Positions 2 to 5,798 of a DNA stretch of 6,191 bases are shown here, in pieces (the first letter of the stretch is position 1; every line of letters begins with the position of its first letter). The notes under the pieces are model-generated. The model was not told the DNA's origin. It saw only the letters and a program-made list of their open reading frames with translations, and searched no databases. Position numbers and translations under genes: made by a program. This DNA is from Bacteroidales bacterium 45-6 (GTDB lineage: Bacteria > Bacteroidota > Bacteroidia > Bacteroidales > Dysgonomonadaceae). The stretch lies in contig MKRS01000610.1 of the NCBI GenBank assembly GCA_001897035.1, forward strand, positions 1-6,191, given 5' to 3'.

Positions 2-250
2 AGAGAGGATATAACAACGACAATAGAGGGGAAAACAGTACTCTCTGCTAAAGGTGAACTTTTTCTGCACAACTTAAATAAGGAATTAAGAAAGAGTGGT
101 TTATATAGATATGTTTCCTCTAGTATAGAAAACCGAATTGAAAAAATAGAAAAAGAAGAAATTTATATACCTTTGTCAACTGTTAAGAAAGAGAAGCTTT
201 TTAGTTTGTCACATGAAAATGTGAAGATTGACGAGTCGTCAATCGACTGA
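2..250 (+). CDS. C-terminal fragment (82 aa) of an unrecognised protein; possible retron partner gene
   Basis: The frame is open from the window edge to a TGA at 248-250; the start lies outside the window. In a region this AT-rich, 82 codons without a stop is unlikely by chance. The residues also look like real protein: a stretch EGKTVLSAKGELFLHNLNKE resembles the hairpin-plus-helix end of a winged-helix domain, followed by a highly charged helix (IENRIEKIEKEEIY) and a polar tail. I do not recognise the family, and the winged-helix idea is weak. The last 22 codons or so coincide with the a1 segment and msr hairpins of the retron ncRNA, so this DNA does two jobs or the tail of the gene is relaxed. 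Lying immediately upstream on the same strand, the gene could encode the retron effector, or be an unrelated neighbour. Confidence 0.6.
   Translation, partial: REDITTTIEGKTVLSAKGELFLHNLNKELRKSGLYRYVSSSIENRIEKIEKEEIYIPLSTVKKEKLFSLSHENVKIDESSID
168..175 (+). promoter_or_regulatory. Predicted Bacteroides-type -7 promoter box of the retron ncRNA
   Basis: TACCTTTG matches the Bacteroides -7 consensus TAnnTTTG exactly. Counting to +1 puts the transcript start at about 182-183, which is the first base of the a1 segment found independently by base pairing. No good TTTG is seen near -33; the nearest is TTG at 138-140, too far upstream. The box lies inside the coding region of the upstream gene. Confidence 0.55.
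183..203 (+). repeat. Retron a1 segment (left arm of the a1/a2 inverted repeat)
   Basis: It begins TTAAGAAAGAGAAGC and pairs with 382-403. In retrons the a1/a2 duplex brings the branching G next to the start of the template; here the duplex ends exactly at G204. At 21 pairs it is long for a retron a1/a2 stem. It lies within the coding region of the upstream gene. Confidence 0.85.
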
Positions 251-269
251 GAATTTCCTTTCAAGCCTG

Positions 270-323
270 GAAGTAAGATGCAAATTTTGCTTTCTGGAGA
301 AAGCGAAATTTGCATCTTACTTC
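270..323 (+). repeat. 26-bp msd inverted repeat (long hairpin)
   Basis: Arms 270-295 and 298-323 are complementary over 26 positions around a central GG. The only imperfection is one T-G wobble (position 288 with 305). No T-run follows it on either strand, so it is not an intrinsic terminator. Its place between the msr hairpins and the a2 segment fits the main msd stem, which would become the duplex hairpin of the msDNA. Confidence 0.85.
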
Positions 324-381
324 GACTGCGCAAGCTAAAGCTTGCTTGTCACAGATTACAAGTAATCTGAAGATAATTTAG

Positions 382-403
382 TAAAAAGCTTTTCTTATCT
401 TAA
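382..403 (+). repeat. Retron a2 segment (right arm of the a1/a2 inverted repeat)
   Basis: It pairs with 183-203, with A397 unpaired, and ends 12 nt before the ATG of the reverse transcriptase. Position 381 is the first unpaired template base beside the duplex and the likely start of cDNA synthesis. Confidence 0.85.
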
Positions 404-415
404 CAATATAATATT

Positions 416-1471
416 ATGATAGACTTTAAAATATATAAACAAAATTTCTCTACTGAAGCAGAACGATTAGGTTTATCAAATGAAGTAATAGAGCTTCTTC
501 TTAATTACGCTCAAAGTTTAAACTCTCATAATTTCCCTATTATATATGATCAATCTCATTTTTCTAAATTAGTGGGATATCGTTATGGATATATTCTATG
601 CATATGTAATTCTCCAGATGTATTTTATAAAGAATGGAAAATAACTAAAAGAAATGGCAAGTTACGCACTATACATGAGCCTTTGCCTAGCTTAAAAGAA
701 ATTCAGAACTGGATATTAAAAGAAATACTGAACACTGCTGTTAATGAATTTGTTTCTCCTGTAGCTAAGGCATATACTCCTGACAGAAATATAAGGGATA
801 ATGCACGATTTCATAAAAATAAAAAAATTGTTGTTTGCTTAGATATTGTTGATTTCTTTGGCACTGTAACATATAAGCAAGTCTATTCTATTTTTAGACA
901 ATTTGGGTATAACAAATCTATTGCAACATTGTTAAGTAATTTGTGTATTTTGGAAGGAAGCTTACCTCAAGGAGCTCCAACAAGCCCGATGCTTTCAAAT
1001 CTCATATTTTATCATATTGATACTGCTATATTTAAATTCTGTAAAGAACGAAAAATAATGTATACAAGGTATGCTGACGATCTATCTTTCTCTGGGGATT
1101 TTAATGTCGGTTTATTAATATCTTATATTTCAAATTTATTATCCTATCATGGATTCTCTATAAATGAGAAAAAGACCAAAGTCCTCTCACGGGGAAGATC
1201 TCAACAAATAACAGGTATTGTTGTTAATGAAAAAATTCAAGTTTCTCGTCGATATAGGAAGCGAATCCGCCAAGAAATATATCATATAATTAAATATGGA
1301 TTAGAAAATCACTTAAAAAAAATAGCATATCCTAAATCTTCTATCCAATATTTACATCATTTAATGGGTAAAATAAACTTTGTCTTATTGATAAATAAGA
1401 GCGACAATGAAGCGATTCGATATATGGAGTATTTAAAAAGTATATATAATTCATACAAAACATTGATTTAA
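416..1471 (+). CDS. Retron reverse transcriptase (351 aa)
   Basis: RNA-dependent DNA polymerase expected to extend the 2'-OH of the branching G in the upstream ncRNA and make msDNA. Retron hallmarks seen: NAxxH as NARFH at 129-133, motif A LDIVDFF with D143, QGAPTSP at 185-191, YADD at 219-222 with the two metal-binding aspartates, and the region Y motif as ITGIVVN at 265-271 (normally VTG). The N-terminal stretch with PIIYDQSHFSKLVGY (41-55) and EPLPSLKEIQNWIL (88-101) is typical of retron RTs. The protein ends soon after the thumb segment (HHLMGKINFV, 314-323), leaving no room for a fused effector domain. No maturase or endonuclease domain is present, so a group II intron RT is excluded. 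The ATG at 416 is the first start in the frame and lies 12 nt after a2, so ncRNA and RT are probably on one transcript. All catalytic residues are intact. Confidence 0.95.
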   Translation: MIDFKIYKQNFSTEAERLGLSNEVIELLLNYAQSLNSHNFPIIYDQSHFSKLVGYRYGYILCICNSPDVFYKEWKITKRNGKLRTIHEPLPSLKEIQNWILKEILNTAVNEFVSPVAKAYTPDRNIRDNARFHKNKKIVVCLDIVDFFGTVTYKQVYSIFRQFGYNKSIATLLSNLCILEGSLPQGAPTSPMLSNLIFYHIDTAIFKFCKERKIMYTRYADDLSFSGDFNVGLLISYISNLLSYHGFSINEKKTKVLSRGRSQQITGIVVNEKIQVSRRYRKRIRQEIYHIIKYGLENHLKKIAYPKSSIQYLHHLMGKINFVLLINKSDNEAIRYMEYLKSIYNSYKTLI

Positions 1472-1528
1472 ATTATACTTTTAGCCTCAAGCAAGATCTT
1501 TTAGTTCTCTTCTTTGTAGTATAATTTA
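1469..1528. terminator. Possible bidirectional terminator between convergent genes
   Basis: TAAATTATACT (1469-1479) and AGTATAATTTA (1518-1528) form an 11-bp perfect inverted repeat. It spans the stop of the reverse transcriptase and the stop of the opposing NA37 gene. The 38-nt interior contains the palindrome AAGATCTT (1493-1500). The stem is AT-rich with a long loop, so termination is only a positional guess. Confidence 0.3.
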
Positions 1529-2544
1529 TAAAAATTCATTTTTTTTTCTTGATCAAATCCTTGCTCAATAAATTCTTCCCCTCCATGAATTTTTATATCA
1601 AAATTTTTATCTAATTTAATAGTAGACATTTTCCCTTTAGCTCTTTTCTTCAAGGCTTGTTCAGATATTACAAATGACTCCTTAAGTATAATATCTCTTT
1701 CTTGAATATAAGAATCTTTATATTTCTCGAAACTTTGAATAACATTAGGGTCGGAAAAAACTTCTTCTGTAAACTCTTTGATATTAAAGCTTGCATTATT
1801 CTTTAAAGCATTAATCCCTTTGTTTAAGAATAAAGCTTGATCAATCTTAGATACTTCAAATTCATTTGGCAATTCCTTATTTATATAATTCTTCAATAAT
1901 GATATAACTTTCTGTGTATCATGATATTCATCTTGTCTAGGTTTAACCCGAAGAAAATCATCAGTCCAATACTTTGCTTCAACACCTTTATTAATATTAT
2001 CAACAATAGTAACAAGATAACCAGCATCTTTTTCAATATTAAAAATAACACATCCTTTATCTAACTTATTAATATTGATACCTTTTTCACTTTCTATTTC
2101 AAAATTGCTGCCAGAAGAAAACACTTTCAAAAAAGTATCTTTATTTTCAGACTTAAAGAGCCCAATAGCATCAACATTTTCATTATTAATTCTACAATTT
2201 CTAAAATGTACTATGTAACATTCTCCATTTTTTATTTTAGGATGTATACTCCTTTCATATAGATGTTTAACTATATTGATTGATTGATTGAAAAACGAAG
2301 TAGGGGTTTGAAATATTTCAGAAACAAAAGAATATATTTCATTTAAAGACAAATCAGTTTCATGGTATAAATTGTAATATTCTTCTGATTTAAACGGAGT
2401 GACGAAATAATGCAATAATAAACTTTTAATTTCATCACTTGGCGCAATCGATGATTTTGAGAACTTACAAATGTCATCATTGGTTTTATTCCCTACACTA
2501 TGAATTATAAGTTGAGATATTTCAGATGCGGAAAAATCTATCAT
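1501..2544 (-). CDS. Nucleoid-associated protein, NA37 family, Bacteroidota type (347 aa)
   Basis: Last gene of the three-gene operon. The pattern (IDFSASEISQLIIHSVGNK at 2-20, LLLHYFVTPFKSEEYY at 42-57, HLYERSIHPKIKNGE at 94-108, DAIGLFKSENKDTFLKV at 125-141, AGYLVTIVDN at 174-183, KYWTDDFL at 191-198) is what I recall of the roughly 340-aa nucleoid-associated protein common in Bacteroidota and assigned to NA37 (NdpA/YejK). Family members bind the nucleoid; the E. coli homologue YejK is reported to interact with type II topoisomerases. The role here is unknown. The start is fixed by a TAATG overlap with the stop of the membrane-protein gene, which suggests translational coupling. No signal peptide or membrane segment is seen. 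It differs strongly from the NA37 protein encoded first in the operon, so the two are not a recent duplication. The coding strand contains a short four-unit tetranucleotide tract (2275-2290), frame intact. Confidence 0.8.
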   Translation of the reverse strand: MIDFSASEISQLIIHSVGNKTNDDICKFSKSSIAPSDEIKSLLLHYFVTPFKSEEYYNLYHETDLSLNEIYSFVSEIFQTPTSFFNQSINIVKHLYERSIHPKIKNGECYIVHFRNCRINNENVDAIGLFKSENKDTFLKVFSSGSNFEIESEKGININKLDKGCVIFNIEKDAGYLVTIVDNINKGVEAKYWTDDFLRVKPRQDEYHDTQKVISLLKNYINKELPNEFEVSKIDQALFLNKGINALKNNASFNIKEFTEEVFSDPNVIQSFEKYKDSYIQERDIILKESFVISEQALKKRAKGKMSTIKLDKNFDIKIHGGEEFIEQGFDQEKKMNFYKLYYKEEN

Positions 2545-3734
2545 TATATAATTATTTTAAATATAATACTGACTAAAGTGAATCCTGCTAAAATATAAGA
2601 CAAGATGCTAAACCCTATTAAGCATAGCCAAAGTATAAGTAATCCTATTGGTATCATCCAAAGAATTACTTCAACAACAAATAGTCTATCTTGTTGTTTT
2701 TTTAACTCTAACTCGACTAAGCTAAACTTACTTGATATTATTTCGACATTATTGTTCTTAAAAGTTTCTTTATATGAGTCAATGTTACCATTGATAAAAT
2801 CCAAGGAACTCTTTTGATTATTAATGAATTGTTGAATTATAATTGCAAAAATAAATAGACTGATAATGGTTACGACATTCTTTATAGTAAATAAGTCACT
2901 ATCGTAATTAAAGGTAGCACATGCAAGAACAAAAACTGTTGGGATTGCAATTAATTTCGTTTGTGCTTCATTTATTATTGACTGAATTTTTTGTGTATAT
3001 TCTAAAGCTTTTGAATCTAGCTCAATTTTTAATTTATTGTAGGAAAAATCTCTTAAATAAAATTGATATGCATCATTACATTTTTGATAAAATTCAGAGA
3101 AATGAGACAGTAAATATTTGAAACGCTGATTCTCTCTCTGTAAAGAAAGGAAGTCGATTAGTTCGTTTATATATAGAAGTTGCTTTTCATTACTTTCACC
3201 TCCAAAGACTTCAGATACAAAATTTAATTTGTTTAAATCAATATCCTTTAGTTGAGTAATATCTTTAATGCTATATTCAAAAGTGACAAAAAGAGATTTA
3301 TCTTCTCTGAATATTATCATGTTTTTTATATCAACATCATCATATGTATGTCTGGCAATATTTTCTAAAGAACTTATTAAATTAGTTATTGCAATATATT
3401 TTGAAATAGATACATTGTTTCCCGAAAGACTGGAATATTCAAGATCGAATATGTAATAAGCTCCATCTGGCTGCTTATATCTATTTTGGGATAAAAAATT
3501 ATTAAAGGAATAATAAAACCCCACCTTAGATAATCCATATATAGACAAATTCAAGTCAATAATTTCATTATCATTTAGGTCATTGAGATATACTATATCC
3601 TCAAAACAATCATTGTTATATAAGAATTCTAAGCATTCCTTATCTGTAATTTTATATTTTGCACAAAATAATGCTCCTGACTTTAGAGAATGGCTTTGGC
3701 TCTGATTTATGATAGAAACAATATGGGATAACAT
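2544..3734 (-). CDS. Unrecognised protein with four C-terminal membrane segments (396 aa)
   Basis: I do not recognise the family. Residues 1 to about 255 are soluble, without a signal peptide, so the N-terminal part is probably cytoplasmic. Two pairs of hydrophobic segments follow: about 261-275 and 284-303, then about 352-374 and 377-395. Between the pairs lies a polar, probably coiled-coil stretch (305-350, with VELELKKQQDR at 340-350), and another helical charged stretch precedes the first pair (228-260). Two membrane hairpins with the bulk of the protein in the cytoplasm is a layout seen in membrane-acting effectors, but that is only an analogy. The gene is joined to both neighbours by TAATG overlaps (A3734 and A2544 shared), so it should be made together with the two NA37 proteins. 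It ends in a very hydrophobic tail (IIFKIII) with no room for a C-terminal soluble domain. Confidence 0.85.
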   Translation of the reverse strand: MLSHIVSIINQSQSHSLKSGALFCAKYKITDKECLEFLYNNDCFEDIVYLNDLNDNEIIDLNLSIYGLSKVGFYYSFNNFLSQNRYKQPDGAYYIFDLEYSSLSGNNVSISKYIAITNLISSLENIARHTYDDVDIKNMIIFREDKSLFVTFEYSIKDITQLKDIDLNKLNFVSEVFGGESNEKQLLYINELIDFLSLQRENQRFKYLLSHFSEFYQKCNDAYQFYLRDFSYNKLKIELDSKALEYTQKIQSIINEAQTKLIAIPTVFVLACATFNYDSDLFTIKNVVTIISLFIFAIIIQQFINNQKSSLDFINGNIDSYKETFKNNNVEIISSKFSLVELELKKQQDRLFVVEVILWMIPIGLLILWLCLIGFSILSYILAGFTLVSIIFKIII

Positions 3735-4771
3735 TATCTCTCTAATTCCTTAATTAAGTTTGTAGGCAAGTTCTTAAATGTTAATTGTTTTTTACTTTTA
3801 TCATAAAAAACATCTTTTCCTAGTAAATTATTATCAAAGCCAACTGTAATATCATTGTCTTTATAATATATATATCGTAATTTTTTTAGTTGGGGTTTAT
3901 CACCACTTATTATAGGGTTTACACCATATTCTTCATTGCAGGCAAATTCCTCGAATTCAGCTGGACTGTCTGGGTTAAGAATTGCAGATATTGTTGAAAG
4001 TAATATTTCTTTATTATTCTTCATACAACCATCACAATACTCAAAAACTTCATTTCTTTTTTTAAGAGTATCCTTGTGATTATATCCTTTCTCTTTACAG
4101 TAACTATTAAAAGCGATAATAAGTCTTTTTGTTGATTCTGTATTCGTCGTTTTATCTGCACAATCAATAAAAGACATAAAATAATAGCTTACGTCTTTGA
4201 TTCCTTTTGCAAAAGATAGGTATGTTTTGCTCTCTTTGTCTAATTCGGATTCGATTTTTTGCCATTTTGTTATATTTATCTGGCATGCAACATCAACTTT
4301 ACTTAAATCAATATTTTTAATATCTTGAATTGTTAGATCAGCTTCGCTTACCATGTACCCATCTTTGTTATTAATCGTTAGAACTAGTAGGTATTCACTA
4401 TTGTTTTCTGAATTAAGATAATGGGCAAAAATAATAAAACCTCCTGTCGCTGGAGCAGATGTAGAAAGTACCCGTTCATAATGAGCTACAGCTTTTCTTG
4501 AAAAAGATAAGAAATCGTCTTCTAAAAGATAATTTTCTAACAAATTCTTAAAAGTTGGATCAATATCACCAAAGATCCCATATATCGGGGATTTTTGACC
4601 ATAAGCTTTATTGATTCGTCCTACAAACTGTTTTTCTTTTTTACTTGTCTTGATTAAAGATTTTGCTTCTTTCAAGGCTGTGTCTCTTTCTCCAGCTGTT
4701 TTTATCACTTGATGAATTACAAAACCTCTCAGTGTGATGTTATGTCCAATCTCTTTCAATGTTTTAGCCAT
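3734..4771 (-). CDS. NdpA/YejK-like nucleoid-associated protein, NA37 family (345 aa)
   Basis: First gene of the operon. It follows E. coli YejK (about 335 aa) along its length: FVIHQVIK (17-24), GRINKAYGQKSPIYGIF (51-67), DDFLSFSRKAVAHYERVL (85-102), GGFIIFAHY (110-118), EYLLVLTINNKDGY (126-139), IDLSKVDVACQINITKW (154-170), TYLSFAKGIKDVSYYFMSFI (183-202), FEEFACNEEYGV (273-284) and a C-terminal VGFDNNLLGKDVFYD (310-324) with ITV before it. YejK is a nucleoid protein reported to interact with type II topoisomerases. I chose the ATG at 4771 (MAKTLKE). A longer frame to 4846 would start at TTG, add 25 residues with no counterpart in the family, and lie upstream of the predicted promoter box. 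The stop overlaps the next ATG by one base (TAATG). The gene is AT-rich compared with the mobilization genes upstream. Confidence 0.9.
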   Translation of the reverse strand: MAKTLKEIGHNITLRGFVIHQVIKTAGERDTALKEAKSLIKTSKKEKQFVGRINKAYGQKSPIYGIFGDIDPTFKNLLENYLLEDDFLSFSRKAVAHYERVLSTSAPATGGFIIFAHYLNSENNSEYLLVLTINNKDGYMVSEADLTIQDIKNIDLSKVDVACQINITKWQKIESELDKESKTYLSFAKGIKDVSYYFMSFIDCADKTTNTESTKRLIIAFNSYCKEKGYNHKDTLKKRNEVFEYCDGCMKNNKEILLSTISAILNPDSPAEFEEFACNEEYGVNPIISGDKPQLKKLRYIYYKDNDITVGFDNNLLGKDVFYDKSKKQLTFKNLPTNLIKELER

Positions 4772-4827
4772 GGCGATAAGTTTAAATCGATATTTTCTTA
4801 TATGATGGTTTAAGAAAATAAGAAAAA

Positions 4828-4854
4828 CAAATATATTGAATTTCAACGTACAAG
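4828..4854 (-). promoter_or_regulatory. Predicted Bacteroides-type promoter of the NA37 - membrane protein - NA37 operon
   Basis: On the minus strand TATATTTG (4835 to 4828) matches the -7 consensus TAnnTTTG exactly. CTTG (4854 to 4851) is a partial -33 element, but the 15-nt gap is shorter than usual. Transcription would start near 4821, leaving about 50 nt of leader before the ATG at 4771. Confidence 0.45.
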
Positions 4855-5003: not shown

Positions 5004-5798
5004 TTACCTTTTCAATCCCCTACTTAGCATCTTTTCCTTTACTTCCTTCCGCTGATTGACTGATTGACTTACTGAGTTCATGTCTTCATGTTGTAATGAA
5101 TTAGTTAGTTCACTCATTCGTTCCTGAATCTTGATTTGTTCTGCAATAGTCCCATTCTTCATCGTATTATAATATTCAAAGCTCTCATCTAATGGTCTGT
5201 TATAATTAAAAAGCTTATCAAATTTCTGCTCTGCCTGTTGGAATAAATTCTTTCTATCAAAACCGCCTGTTATAACGCCTTTCTTTGTATTGCGATGGTT
5301 AGTTAATGGTGAAAGCTTAATTTTATTGGTTTGGTCTTTACGGCTGACAATAATATGACAGTGTATATTCCCTTCGGTCTTCTCTGATCTATCCCTATCG
5401 AAATGTACCTTTCCGTAGAATTTAATATCCTTTGCCGATAGTCCTTTATTGAAATTCTTGGCATATTCAGGAATAAAAATTTCCCGAATATATCTTCTCA
5501 TGGCTTTGCCTTGCTCTTCCTCTGTTGTTCCCATGGCTTTGAGTTCTTTTTCCGATGGACTGATATGAATAGCATAAAACTTAGCATCTGTTTTTAGAAG
5601 TTGGGCTTTGTTATTGTCGATGTCTTTTACGACTTGCGATTTATATAGATTCTCTTCTGTCAGATTGAAAAAGCCCTCGGTATAAATGCCTTTCTCCATA
5701 CGTTCTAAGTCTTCGTGTTCGAGGTAATTTCCTAGTCGTCTACAGCTACCGGCATTATTATATACTCCGTTCGATGGTGGTGGGAAATCTATATTCAT
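5004..5798 (-). CDS. Relaxase-like mobilization protein, BtgB / DUF5712 type (264 aa)
   Basis: Likely the DNA-nicking mobilization protein that cuts at oriT for conjugal transfer using another element's machinery. The histidine motif of HUH relaxases is visible: VHFDRDRSEK (131-140) and GNIHCHIIVSRKD (143-155), with H146 and H148 as the HxH pair and H132/D134 as upstream partners. A conserved FYAIHISPSEKELK (74-87) precedes it. The catalytic tyrosine is probably among Y13 and Y25 near the N-terminus (VYNNAGSCRRLGNYLEHED); which one cannot be decided. The N-terminus MNIDFPPPSNGVYNNAGS agrees with what I recall of Bacteroides mobilization proteins annotated as DUF5712. The C-terminal part (205-264) is helical and charged. 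It lies 25 nt downstream of the BtgA-family gene, as in the btgA-btgB pair of pBFTM10. Base composition is less AT-rich than the NA37 operon. Confidence 0.85.
   Translation of the reverse strand: MNIDFPPPSNGVYNNAGSCRRLGNYLEHEDLERMEKGIYTEGFFNLTEENLYKSQVVKDIDNNKAQLLKTDAKFYAIHISPSEKELKAMGTTEEEQGKAMRRYIREIFIPEYAKNFNKGLSAKDIKFYGKVHFDRDRSEKTEGNIHCHIIVSRKDQTNKIKLSPLTNHRNTKKGVITGGFDRKNLFQQAEQKFDKLFNYNRPLDESFEYYNTMKNGTIAEQIKIQERMSELTNSLQHEDMNSVSQSVNQRKEVKEKMLSRGLKR

What the first reader, a model, noticed from the sequence alone, without database searches (positions are those of the whole stretch)
183..1471. Complete retron with ncRNA boundaries set by a 21-pair a1/a2 stem
The 183-203 / 382-403 duplex, the candidate branch G204 directly after it, two msr hairpins, a 26-bp msd hairpin and an intact retron RT together define a full retron. 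The RT and ncRNA were identified by independent evidence (protein motifs and base pairing) and agree. The organism group and the three-hairpin msd make it unlike the classic enterobacterial retrons.
Basis: partly seen in the sequence, partly recalled or inferred. Interest (0 to 1): 0.8.

Follow-up and report, generated by a model that had tools for sequence, protein, structure and literature searches.

The report
Retron RNA overlapping its partner gene
This is a type III-A-like retron (a reverse transcriptase gene next to an RNA predicted to fold as its DNA template, likely a phage-defence device) in which the reading frame of the partner winged-helix protein runs on through the first third of that RNA, so the same bases spell a protein tail and would also fold as the primer; eight protein clusters, its own included, carry this tail.

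Summary
Positions 181-203/382-405 pair (23 pairs, one bulge), followed by G204, two msr hairpins, a 26-bp msd hairpin and two small ones. The fold is far below shuffles (z -11.2; 0 of 200). The 351-aa protein is an intact retron RT (NAxxH, YADD, ITG); PADLOC ranks RT_III-A first (1.6e-141).

Two corrections. The retron is not complete in the window: type III-A systems carry PRTase and winged-helix (WH) genes upstream. Only the last 82 of 127 WH residues are here; the contig starts inside WH. And the RNA is partly coding: the WH frame runs through a1, G204 and both msr hairpins, stopping at 248-250.

Eight WH clusters carry the tail LFSLSHENVKIDESSID or close variants (mean pairwise identity 0.93, core 0.55); one runs on into the msd. 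The nearest relative with DNA (L003) keeps the RNA but stops WH inside a1, so RNA constraint alone could explain the tail; a peptide role is open.

An msr model from window and L003 gives 8 further hits just upstream of related RTs, mostly weak. msDNA, priming and defence are untested.

The parts
2..250 (+). C-terminal 82 codons and stop of the WH_III-A partner gene (5' end beyond the contig start)
   Evidence: PADLOC WH_III-A 2.2e-9; identical to residues 46-127 of P0121
181..203 (+). a1, 5' arm of the closing stem; also WH codons
204..204 (+). candidate priming (branch) G, in TAGT; also a base of a WH serine codon
   Evidence: position after a1; same context in L003; priming itself untested
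209..224 (+). msr hairpin 1; also WH codons
   Evidence: differs in L003
226..244 (+). msr hairpin 2 with AGT loop; also WH codons
   Evidence: strict form in 10 of 26 loci, one doubtful; R1 hits
248..263 (+). small helix at the msr/msd junction, starts with the WH stop codon TGA; identical in L003
268..325 (+). long msd hairpin, 26 bp
   Evidence: 8 compensated pairs and 2 broken against L003 over 24 pairs
330..345 (+). second msd hairpin, 6 bp
352..369 (+). third msd hairpin, 7 bp
   Evidence: longer hairpin at this place in L003
382..405 (+). a2, 3' arm of the closing stem
168..175 (+). TACCTTTG, possible Bacteroidota -7 promoter element inside WH (weak)
416..1471 (+). retron RT, 351 aa, type III-A

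Best explanation
This locus is a type III-A-like retron in a likely Bacteroidales genome, whose partner winged-helix reading frame runs through the 5' third of the template RNA, and which would work as an anti-phage toxin held in check by the RT and its msDNA. The RT is predicted to bind the msr, prime from the 2'-OH of G204 and copy the msd from about 380 back to about 265, giving a branched DNA of roughly 110-116 nt with three hairpins (inferred). The WH protein and the PRTase expected off the contig would be the effector pair, held inactive by RT and msDNA and released on infection (inferred from other retrons). Because the WH frame ends inside the msr, one RNA molecule would not be both translated to the WH stop and folded as primer at the same moment; the ncRNA is therefore likely made from transcripts that start or are cut near 178-181 (inferred).
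For: RT type: PADLOC RT_III-A 469 bits against 331 for the best other type; the window pairs with P0002 in the tree (100/98) among RTs typed III-A where tested. Partner: WH_III-A frame directly upstream; L003 and L009 have PRTase_III-A, then WH_III-A, then RT. RNA: z -11.2; same series of elements in L003 (z -8.35); over 57 aligned pairs 40 are unchanged, 13 change on both sides and still pair, 1 changes on one side and still pairs, 3 break (arms aligned by hand to the structure; hairpin 1, the third msd hairpin and the outer a1/a2 pairs left out). msr model R1 over 90 sources: of 12 hits at E<=1 other than the two training copies, 8 lie on the RT strand upstream of an RT. Overlap: 8 of 8 tail-bearing WH clusters read the msr in one frame.
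Against: No msDNA, priming or defence was measured. No PRTase was found in the assembly, so that part is inferred from relatives. Only the two training copies score strongly with R1; of the 8 well-placed hits two reach E about 0.001, the rest 0.02 to 1, and 4 of the 12 lie elsewhere. R1 finds nothing but the own genome in 393 genomes of the order. The long a1/a2 stem does not stand out in 18 of 25 RT loci. Branch context is AGT, not AGC. NCBIfam retron St85 scores just under its cut-off (229.8 of 235). In print, III-A Retron-Bpu1 made RT-DNA in E. coli but showed no defence against the panel tested (PMC12548924, passages).
Confidence: 0.85

Rival explanations
1. The overlap is neutral: a lost WH stop let the frame run into an RNA that is conserved only for the RT's sake, and the tail has no function of its own.
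For: L003 keeps the msr sequence while its WH stops with TAA inside a1; stop positions vary among the eight clusters; three of the five tail substitutions seen (P0127 E to S in a loop, P0128 S to R and L to F) look harmless to the RNA by my reading of the codons (inference).
Against: The frame stays open in 8 of 8 clusters although the WH core differs by up to 58% (P0121 against P0128); hairpin 2 varies freely by compensation in other loci but the tail hardly varies here.
Confidence: 0.65
2. The tail is a working part of WH, selected as peptide as well as RNA, for instance to dock on the RT-RNA complex.
For: Tail identity 0.93 against core 0.55, 12 of 17 against 26 of 106 invariant columns; WH-like C-terminal stretches persist next to the RNA in loci without a full WH (L004, L005, L008, L012), and PMC12548924 reports the same for DUF3037.
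Against: RNA constraint explains the identity equally well; those persisting stretches lie upstream of the msr-coded tail; residues 79-127 are predicted with confidence below 50.
Confidence: 0.3
3. The locus is a decaying retron: the PRTase is truly lost and the RT and RNA are remnants.
For: No PRTase match in the assembly; Flavobacterium loci without PRTase or full WH upstream of the RT exist.
Against: WH and RT frames are intact as far as the contig goes; the gap is explained by the contig start; the assembly is 85% complete.
Confidence: 0.08
4. It is another RT defence system (DRT2-like) or a group II intron RT with an unrelated RNA fold.
For: Low-scoring matches to Drt2 (42.6 bits) and group II RT (56.5 bits) models.
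Against: Both far below cut-offs of 390 and 300; retron motifs and retron RNA layout.
Confidence: 0.02

Closest known systems
Type III-A retrons (PRTase + WH + ncRNA + RT), e.g. Retron-Bpu1 and Retron-Ppe1 of PMC12548924
   Same: RT and WH match the PADLOC III-A models; gene order as in L003 and L009
   Different: WH frame runs 70 nt into the ncRNA; likely Bacteroidales host; no sequence comparison with Bpu1 or Ppe1 was made
L003 locus, Muribaculaceae MAG JAFQAS010000026.1
   Same: 57% RT identity, same series of RNA elements, identical CTTTTTAGTTTGTC, PRTase-WH-ncRNA-RT order
   Different: WH stops with TAA inside a1; hairpin 1 differs; longer third msd hairpin
Retron-Eco1 (Ec86; type II-A from recall)
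   Same: Best-scoring solved RT by sequence; closing stem ending at a priming G, msr hairpins, msd hairpin (PMC6868368, passages)
   Different: Different effector type (recalled); TAGC is the usual branch context there
Retron-Sda1 (III-A1-like RT with HipA/DUF3037)
   Same: III-A1-like RNA and RT; C-terminus of the neighbouring protein resembles the DNA-binding protein of III-A1 (PMC12548924 section 10)
   Different: Effector replaced there; here WH is kept

Membership tests
retron | RT with retron motifs: NAXXH in region X, YADD core, VTG at region Y | tested here: met
   NARFH at 129-133, YADD at 219-222, ITG at 265-267 (V to I, as reported for RT-Vch2)
retron | complementary ends of the msr-msd transcript, about 8-30 bases, containing or ending just 5' of the priming G | tested here: met
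   23 pairs, 181-203/382-405, then G204; context TAGT, not the commonest TAGC
retron | msr hairpins and a long msd hairpin next to the RT | tested here: met
   kept in L003
retron | msDNA with 2'-5' branch | not testable with these tools
   needs nucleic acid extraction and sequencing
type III-A retron | RT of the III-A kind | tested here: met
   PDLC02942 1.6e-141; tree with typed relatives
type III-A retron | WH protein gene with the system | tested here: met
   WH_III-A 2.2e-9 for the fragment in the window; 1.9e-20 for P0121
type III-A retron | PRTase gene with the system | tested here: inconclusive
   contig starts inside WH; no match in G000 (no positive control); present in L003, L006, L009
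type III-A retron | III-A ncRNA | tested here: inconclusive
   no Rfam match of note; PADLOC's ncRNA models are not on hand; own msr model gives 8 well-placed hits, mostly weak
DRT2 system | Drt2 RT above the NCBIfam cut-off | tested here: not met
   42.6 bits, cut-off 390
NCBIfam retron St85 RT | score above cut-off | tested here: not met
   229.8 bits, cut-off 235

The most novel reading that the evidence does not exclude
The msr of this retron clade is a dual-use sequence under selection twice: as the RT's primer RNA and as the C-terminal tail of the effector's winged-helix partner. A ribosome finishing WH opens a1/a2 and covers the msr, while a folded msr stops the ribosome, so each transcript makes either toxin partner or antitoxin RNA. 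The overlap is a built-in switch that sets their ratio.
Probability: 0.22. Interest if true: 0.75.

Novelty: new variant of a known kind. Interest (0 to 1): 0.5.

Why it matters
How retrons keep toxin and antitoxin RNA in balance is open. A clade in which the partner gene ends inside the primer RNA gives a simple test: move the stop codon, keep the RNA, and see whether msDNA yield and toxicity change. It also warns annotators that retron RNA and partner genes can overlap. I saw no description of such an overlap in the listings of my full-text searches, and 'overlap' does not occur in the main text of PMC12548924; but I did not read the listed papers through, and the classification paper of Mestre et al. 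2020 is not held, so it may be described there.

Tried and rejected
Rfam scan: two microRNA models at E 0.034 and 0.94, both far under their gathering scores. RT relatives at E<=1e-60, own genome included: 2 of 393 genomes of the order, 2 of 101 of the family, 5 of 395 of the class. The msr model at E<=0.001 over 393 genomes of the order found only the own genome. So no DNA of tail-bearing relatives other than the window was obtained, and synonymous change could not be tested.

A duplex test on loci found by a motif anchor was clear for window, L003 and L017 (0 of 200) and poor for most others; the partition-function test gave 7 of 25 loci with 2 or fewer of 20 shuffles reaching the observed value: window, L003, L007, L014, L017, L023, L316. 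Hairpin 2 under a strict rule was found in 10 of 26 loci, one of them (L316) doubtful, 8 distinct forms. The internal promoter idea is weak: TANNTTTG within 60 nt of the WH end in 5 of 21 loci (for the window counted from base 196, not from its stop), confounded by the protein motif around YIPL, and the window as a whole has 9 matches against 10.3 expected. Fold search of the WH model: 0 matches at E<=0.001; the best hits, at E 0.16 and above, are mostly DNA-binding regulators. Solved structures gave nothing for the 396-aa neighbour (best E 0.7).

Full report
What is there. The window is one whole contig, G000:C610, 6191 nt, of an 899-contig assembly. From left to right it holds a frame open at the contig start (2-250), a strong RNA fold (181-405), an RT gene (416-1471), three genes on the other strand, and on the same strand a relaxase-like gene and an open-ended frame without a Pfam or NCBIfam match.

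The RT. It has no stop inside, 351 aa, Pfam RVT_1 at 1.2e-20, and carries NARFH, YADD and ITG at the places of the retron motifs described in PMC6868368 (passages and section 8 seen). PADLOC ranks RT_III-A first by a wide margin (469 bits; next type Ec107-like 331). The protein search lists 120 of 7069 relatives with E<=0.001; after its own entry the nearest are at 80, 72, 70, 70 and 62%. The best-scoring solved structure by sequence is the Ec86 RT.

The RNA. The fold is -100.8 kcal/mol against -49.8 for shuffles (z -11.2). The closing stem has 23 pairs and one bulge, then G204. PMC6868368 states that this stem contains or ends just before the priming G and that TAGC is commonest; here it is TAGT, and the same in L003. 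L003, a Muribaculaceae locus with 57% RT identity, folds into the same series of elements (z -8.35). With helix arms aligned by hand, 57 pairs compare as 40 unchanged, 13 changed on both sides and still paired, 1 changed on one side and still paired, 3 broken; hairpin 1, the third msd hairpin and the outer a1/a2 pairs, which differ too much, were left out. A covariance model of the msr built from just these two was run over 90 sources, 693 kb. Apart from the two training copies it gave 12 hits at E<=1. Eight lie on the RT strand upstream of an RT (L317, L017, L016, L083, L009, L014, L316, L021); four do not (window minus strand, L014 minus strand, L022, L081; the first two are the palindromic hairpin read backwards). 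Two of the eight reach about 0.001, the others are weak one by one; it is their placement that speaks. The long a1/a2 stem is not universal: 7 of 25 loci stand out, 18 do not.

The overlap. The frame 2-250 is the end of a WH_III-A protein. A full-length cluster, P0121, of 127 aa, contains it identically. PADLOC's model matches residues 8-103; residues 104-127 are read from nucleotides 176-247, and 181-250 is also ncRNA. Two searches gave eight clusters with this tail, P0121-P0128. Their tails agree at 0.93 mean pairwise identity against 0.55 for the core; 12 of 17 tail columns are invariant against 26 of 106 core columns (Fisher p 0.0003; the best 17-column core block has 10). P0123-P0126 run on to 128 aa in all, ending in ELPF or EFPF, and P0127 ends NELSFKPGSKI, which matches the window's frame past its TGA (EFPFKPGSKM), that is, into the 5' arm of the msd hairpin. 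In the 22-row alignment the other 14 WH proteins have no such tail; they end in IRKE, NELHF or the like, as does P0165. I did not inspect the end of each of the 45 proteins.

What the tail means. In L003 the RNA is kept although WH stops inside a1, so RNA constraint is enough to explain the conservation. A peptide role cannot be excluded: the frame is open in all eight clusters. Without DNA of the relatives the two cannot be separated. The structure model has fair confidence for residues 1-78 of WH and is below 50 for 79-127; the fold search gave no significant match.

How it likely works. By analogy with known retrons (PMC12548924: start of the abstract, passages, sections 6 and 10; PMC6868368: passages and section 8) the RT binds the msr, primes from G204, copies the msd, and the RT-msDNA complex restrains the effector until infection. 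All of that is inferred here. For type III-A in that paper, Bpu1 made RT-DNA in E. coli without defence against the panel tested, and Ppe1 could not be transformed (passages). The WH stop directly after hairpin 2 implies that a transcript translated to its end does not at that moment carry a folded msr; a start or cut near a1 would solve this. A TACCTTTG lies at 168-175, where the -7 consensus given in PMC7366714 (passage) would place a start at about 178, but the support is weak.

Context. Genes 1501-4846 on the minus strand are NA37, a 396-aa protein with no Pfam match, and NA37. The 396-aa protein and one NA37 protein match the DS1 anti-phage models below their cut-offs. With a MobB/DUF5712 relaxase-like gene next to them, this looks like a defence island on a mobilisable element (inference).

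Verdict. An ordinary type by its parts, with one unusual and testable feature: a partner gene that ends inside the primer RNA.

Noticed in passing
1501-4846 (minus strand): Three-gene set NA37 / 396-aa protein / NA37. The 396-aa protein matches NCBIfam DS1_2_antiphage (83 bits, cut-off 315) and the NA37 protein at 3734-4846 matches DS1_1_antiphage (94 bits, cut-off 330): a possible distant relative of the DS1 defence pair with an extra NA37 gene.
   Followed up: partly
5004-5798 (minus strand): Relaxase-like gene (DUF5712 2.8e-71, above cut-off; NCBIfam MobB_relaxase 156 bits, cut-off 200), which suggests a mobilisable element.
   Followed up: no
L004, L005, L008, L011, L015 (upstream of the RT): No PRTase or full WH gene seen upstream; a WH-like C-terminal stretch still ends next to the ncRNA (L004, L005, L008 by script; L011 and L015 by eye from the letters). 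In L004, L005, L008 and L011 a gene that looks like a phospholipase D (named by eye) lies upstream.
   Followed up: partly
L012:3491-3814: A WH-like C-terminal stretch fused to an unrelated N-terminal part, reminiscent of the DUF3037 case of Retron-Sda1.
   Followed up: no
L034:1816-2286: Only RT residues 192-348 match, directly behind a long ORF whose start resembles that of the ORF upstream of the PRTase in L003: a deletion or an assembly join.
   Followed up: no
206-210, 346-350 and 372-376: TTGTC occurs twice and can pair with GATAA from either place; in L003 the copy just after the branch G pairs. Alternative folds near the start of reverse transcription.
   Followed up: no
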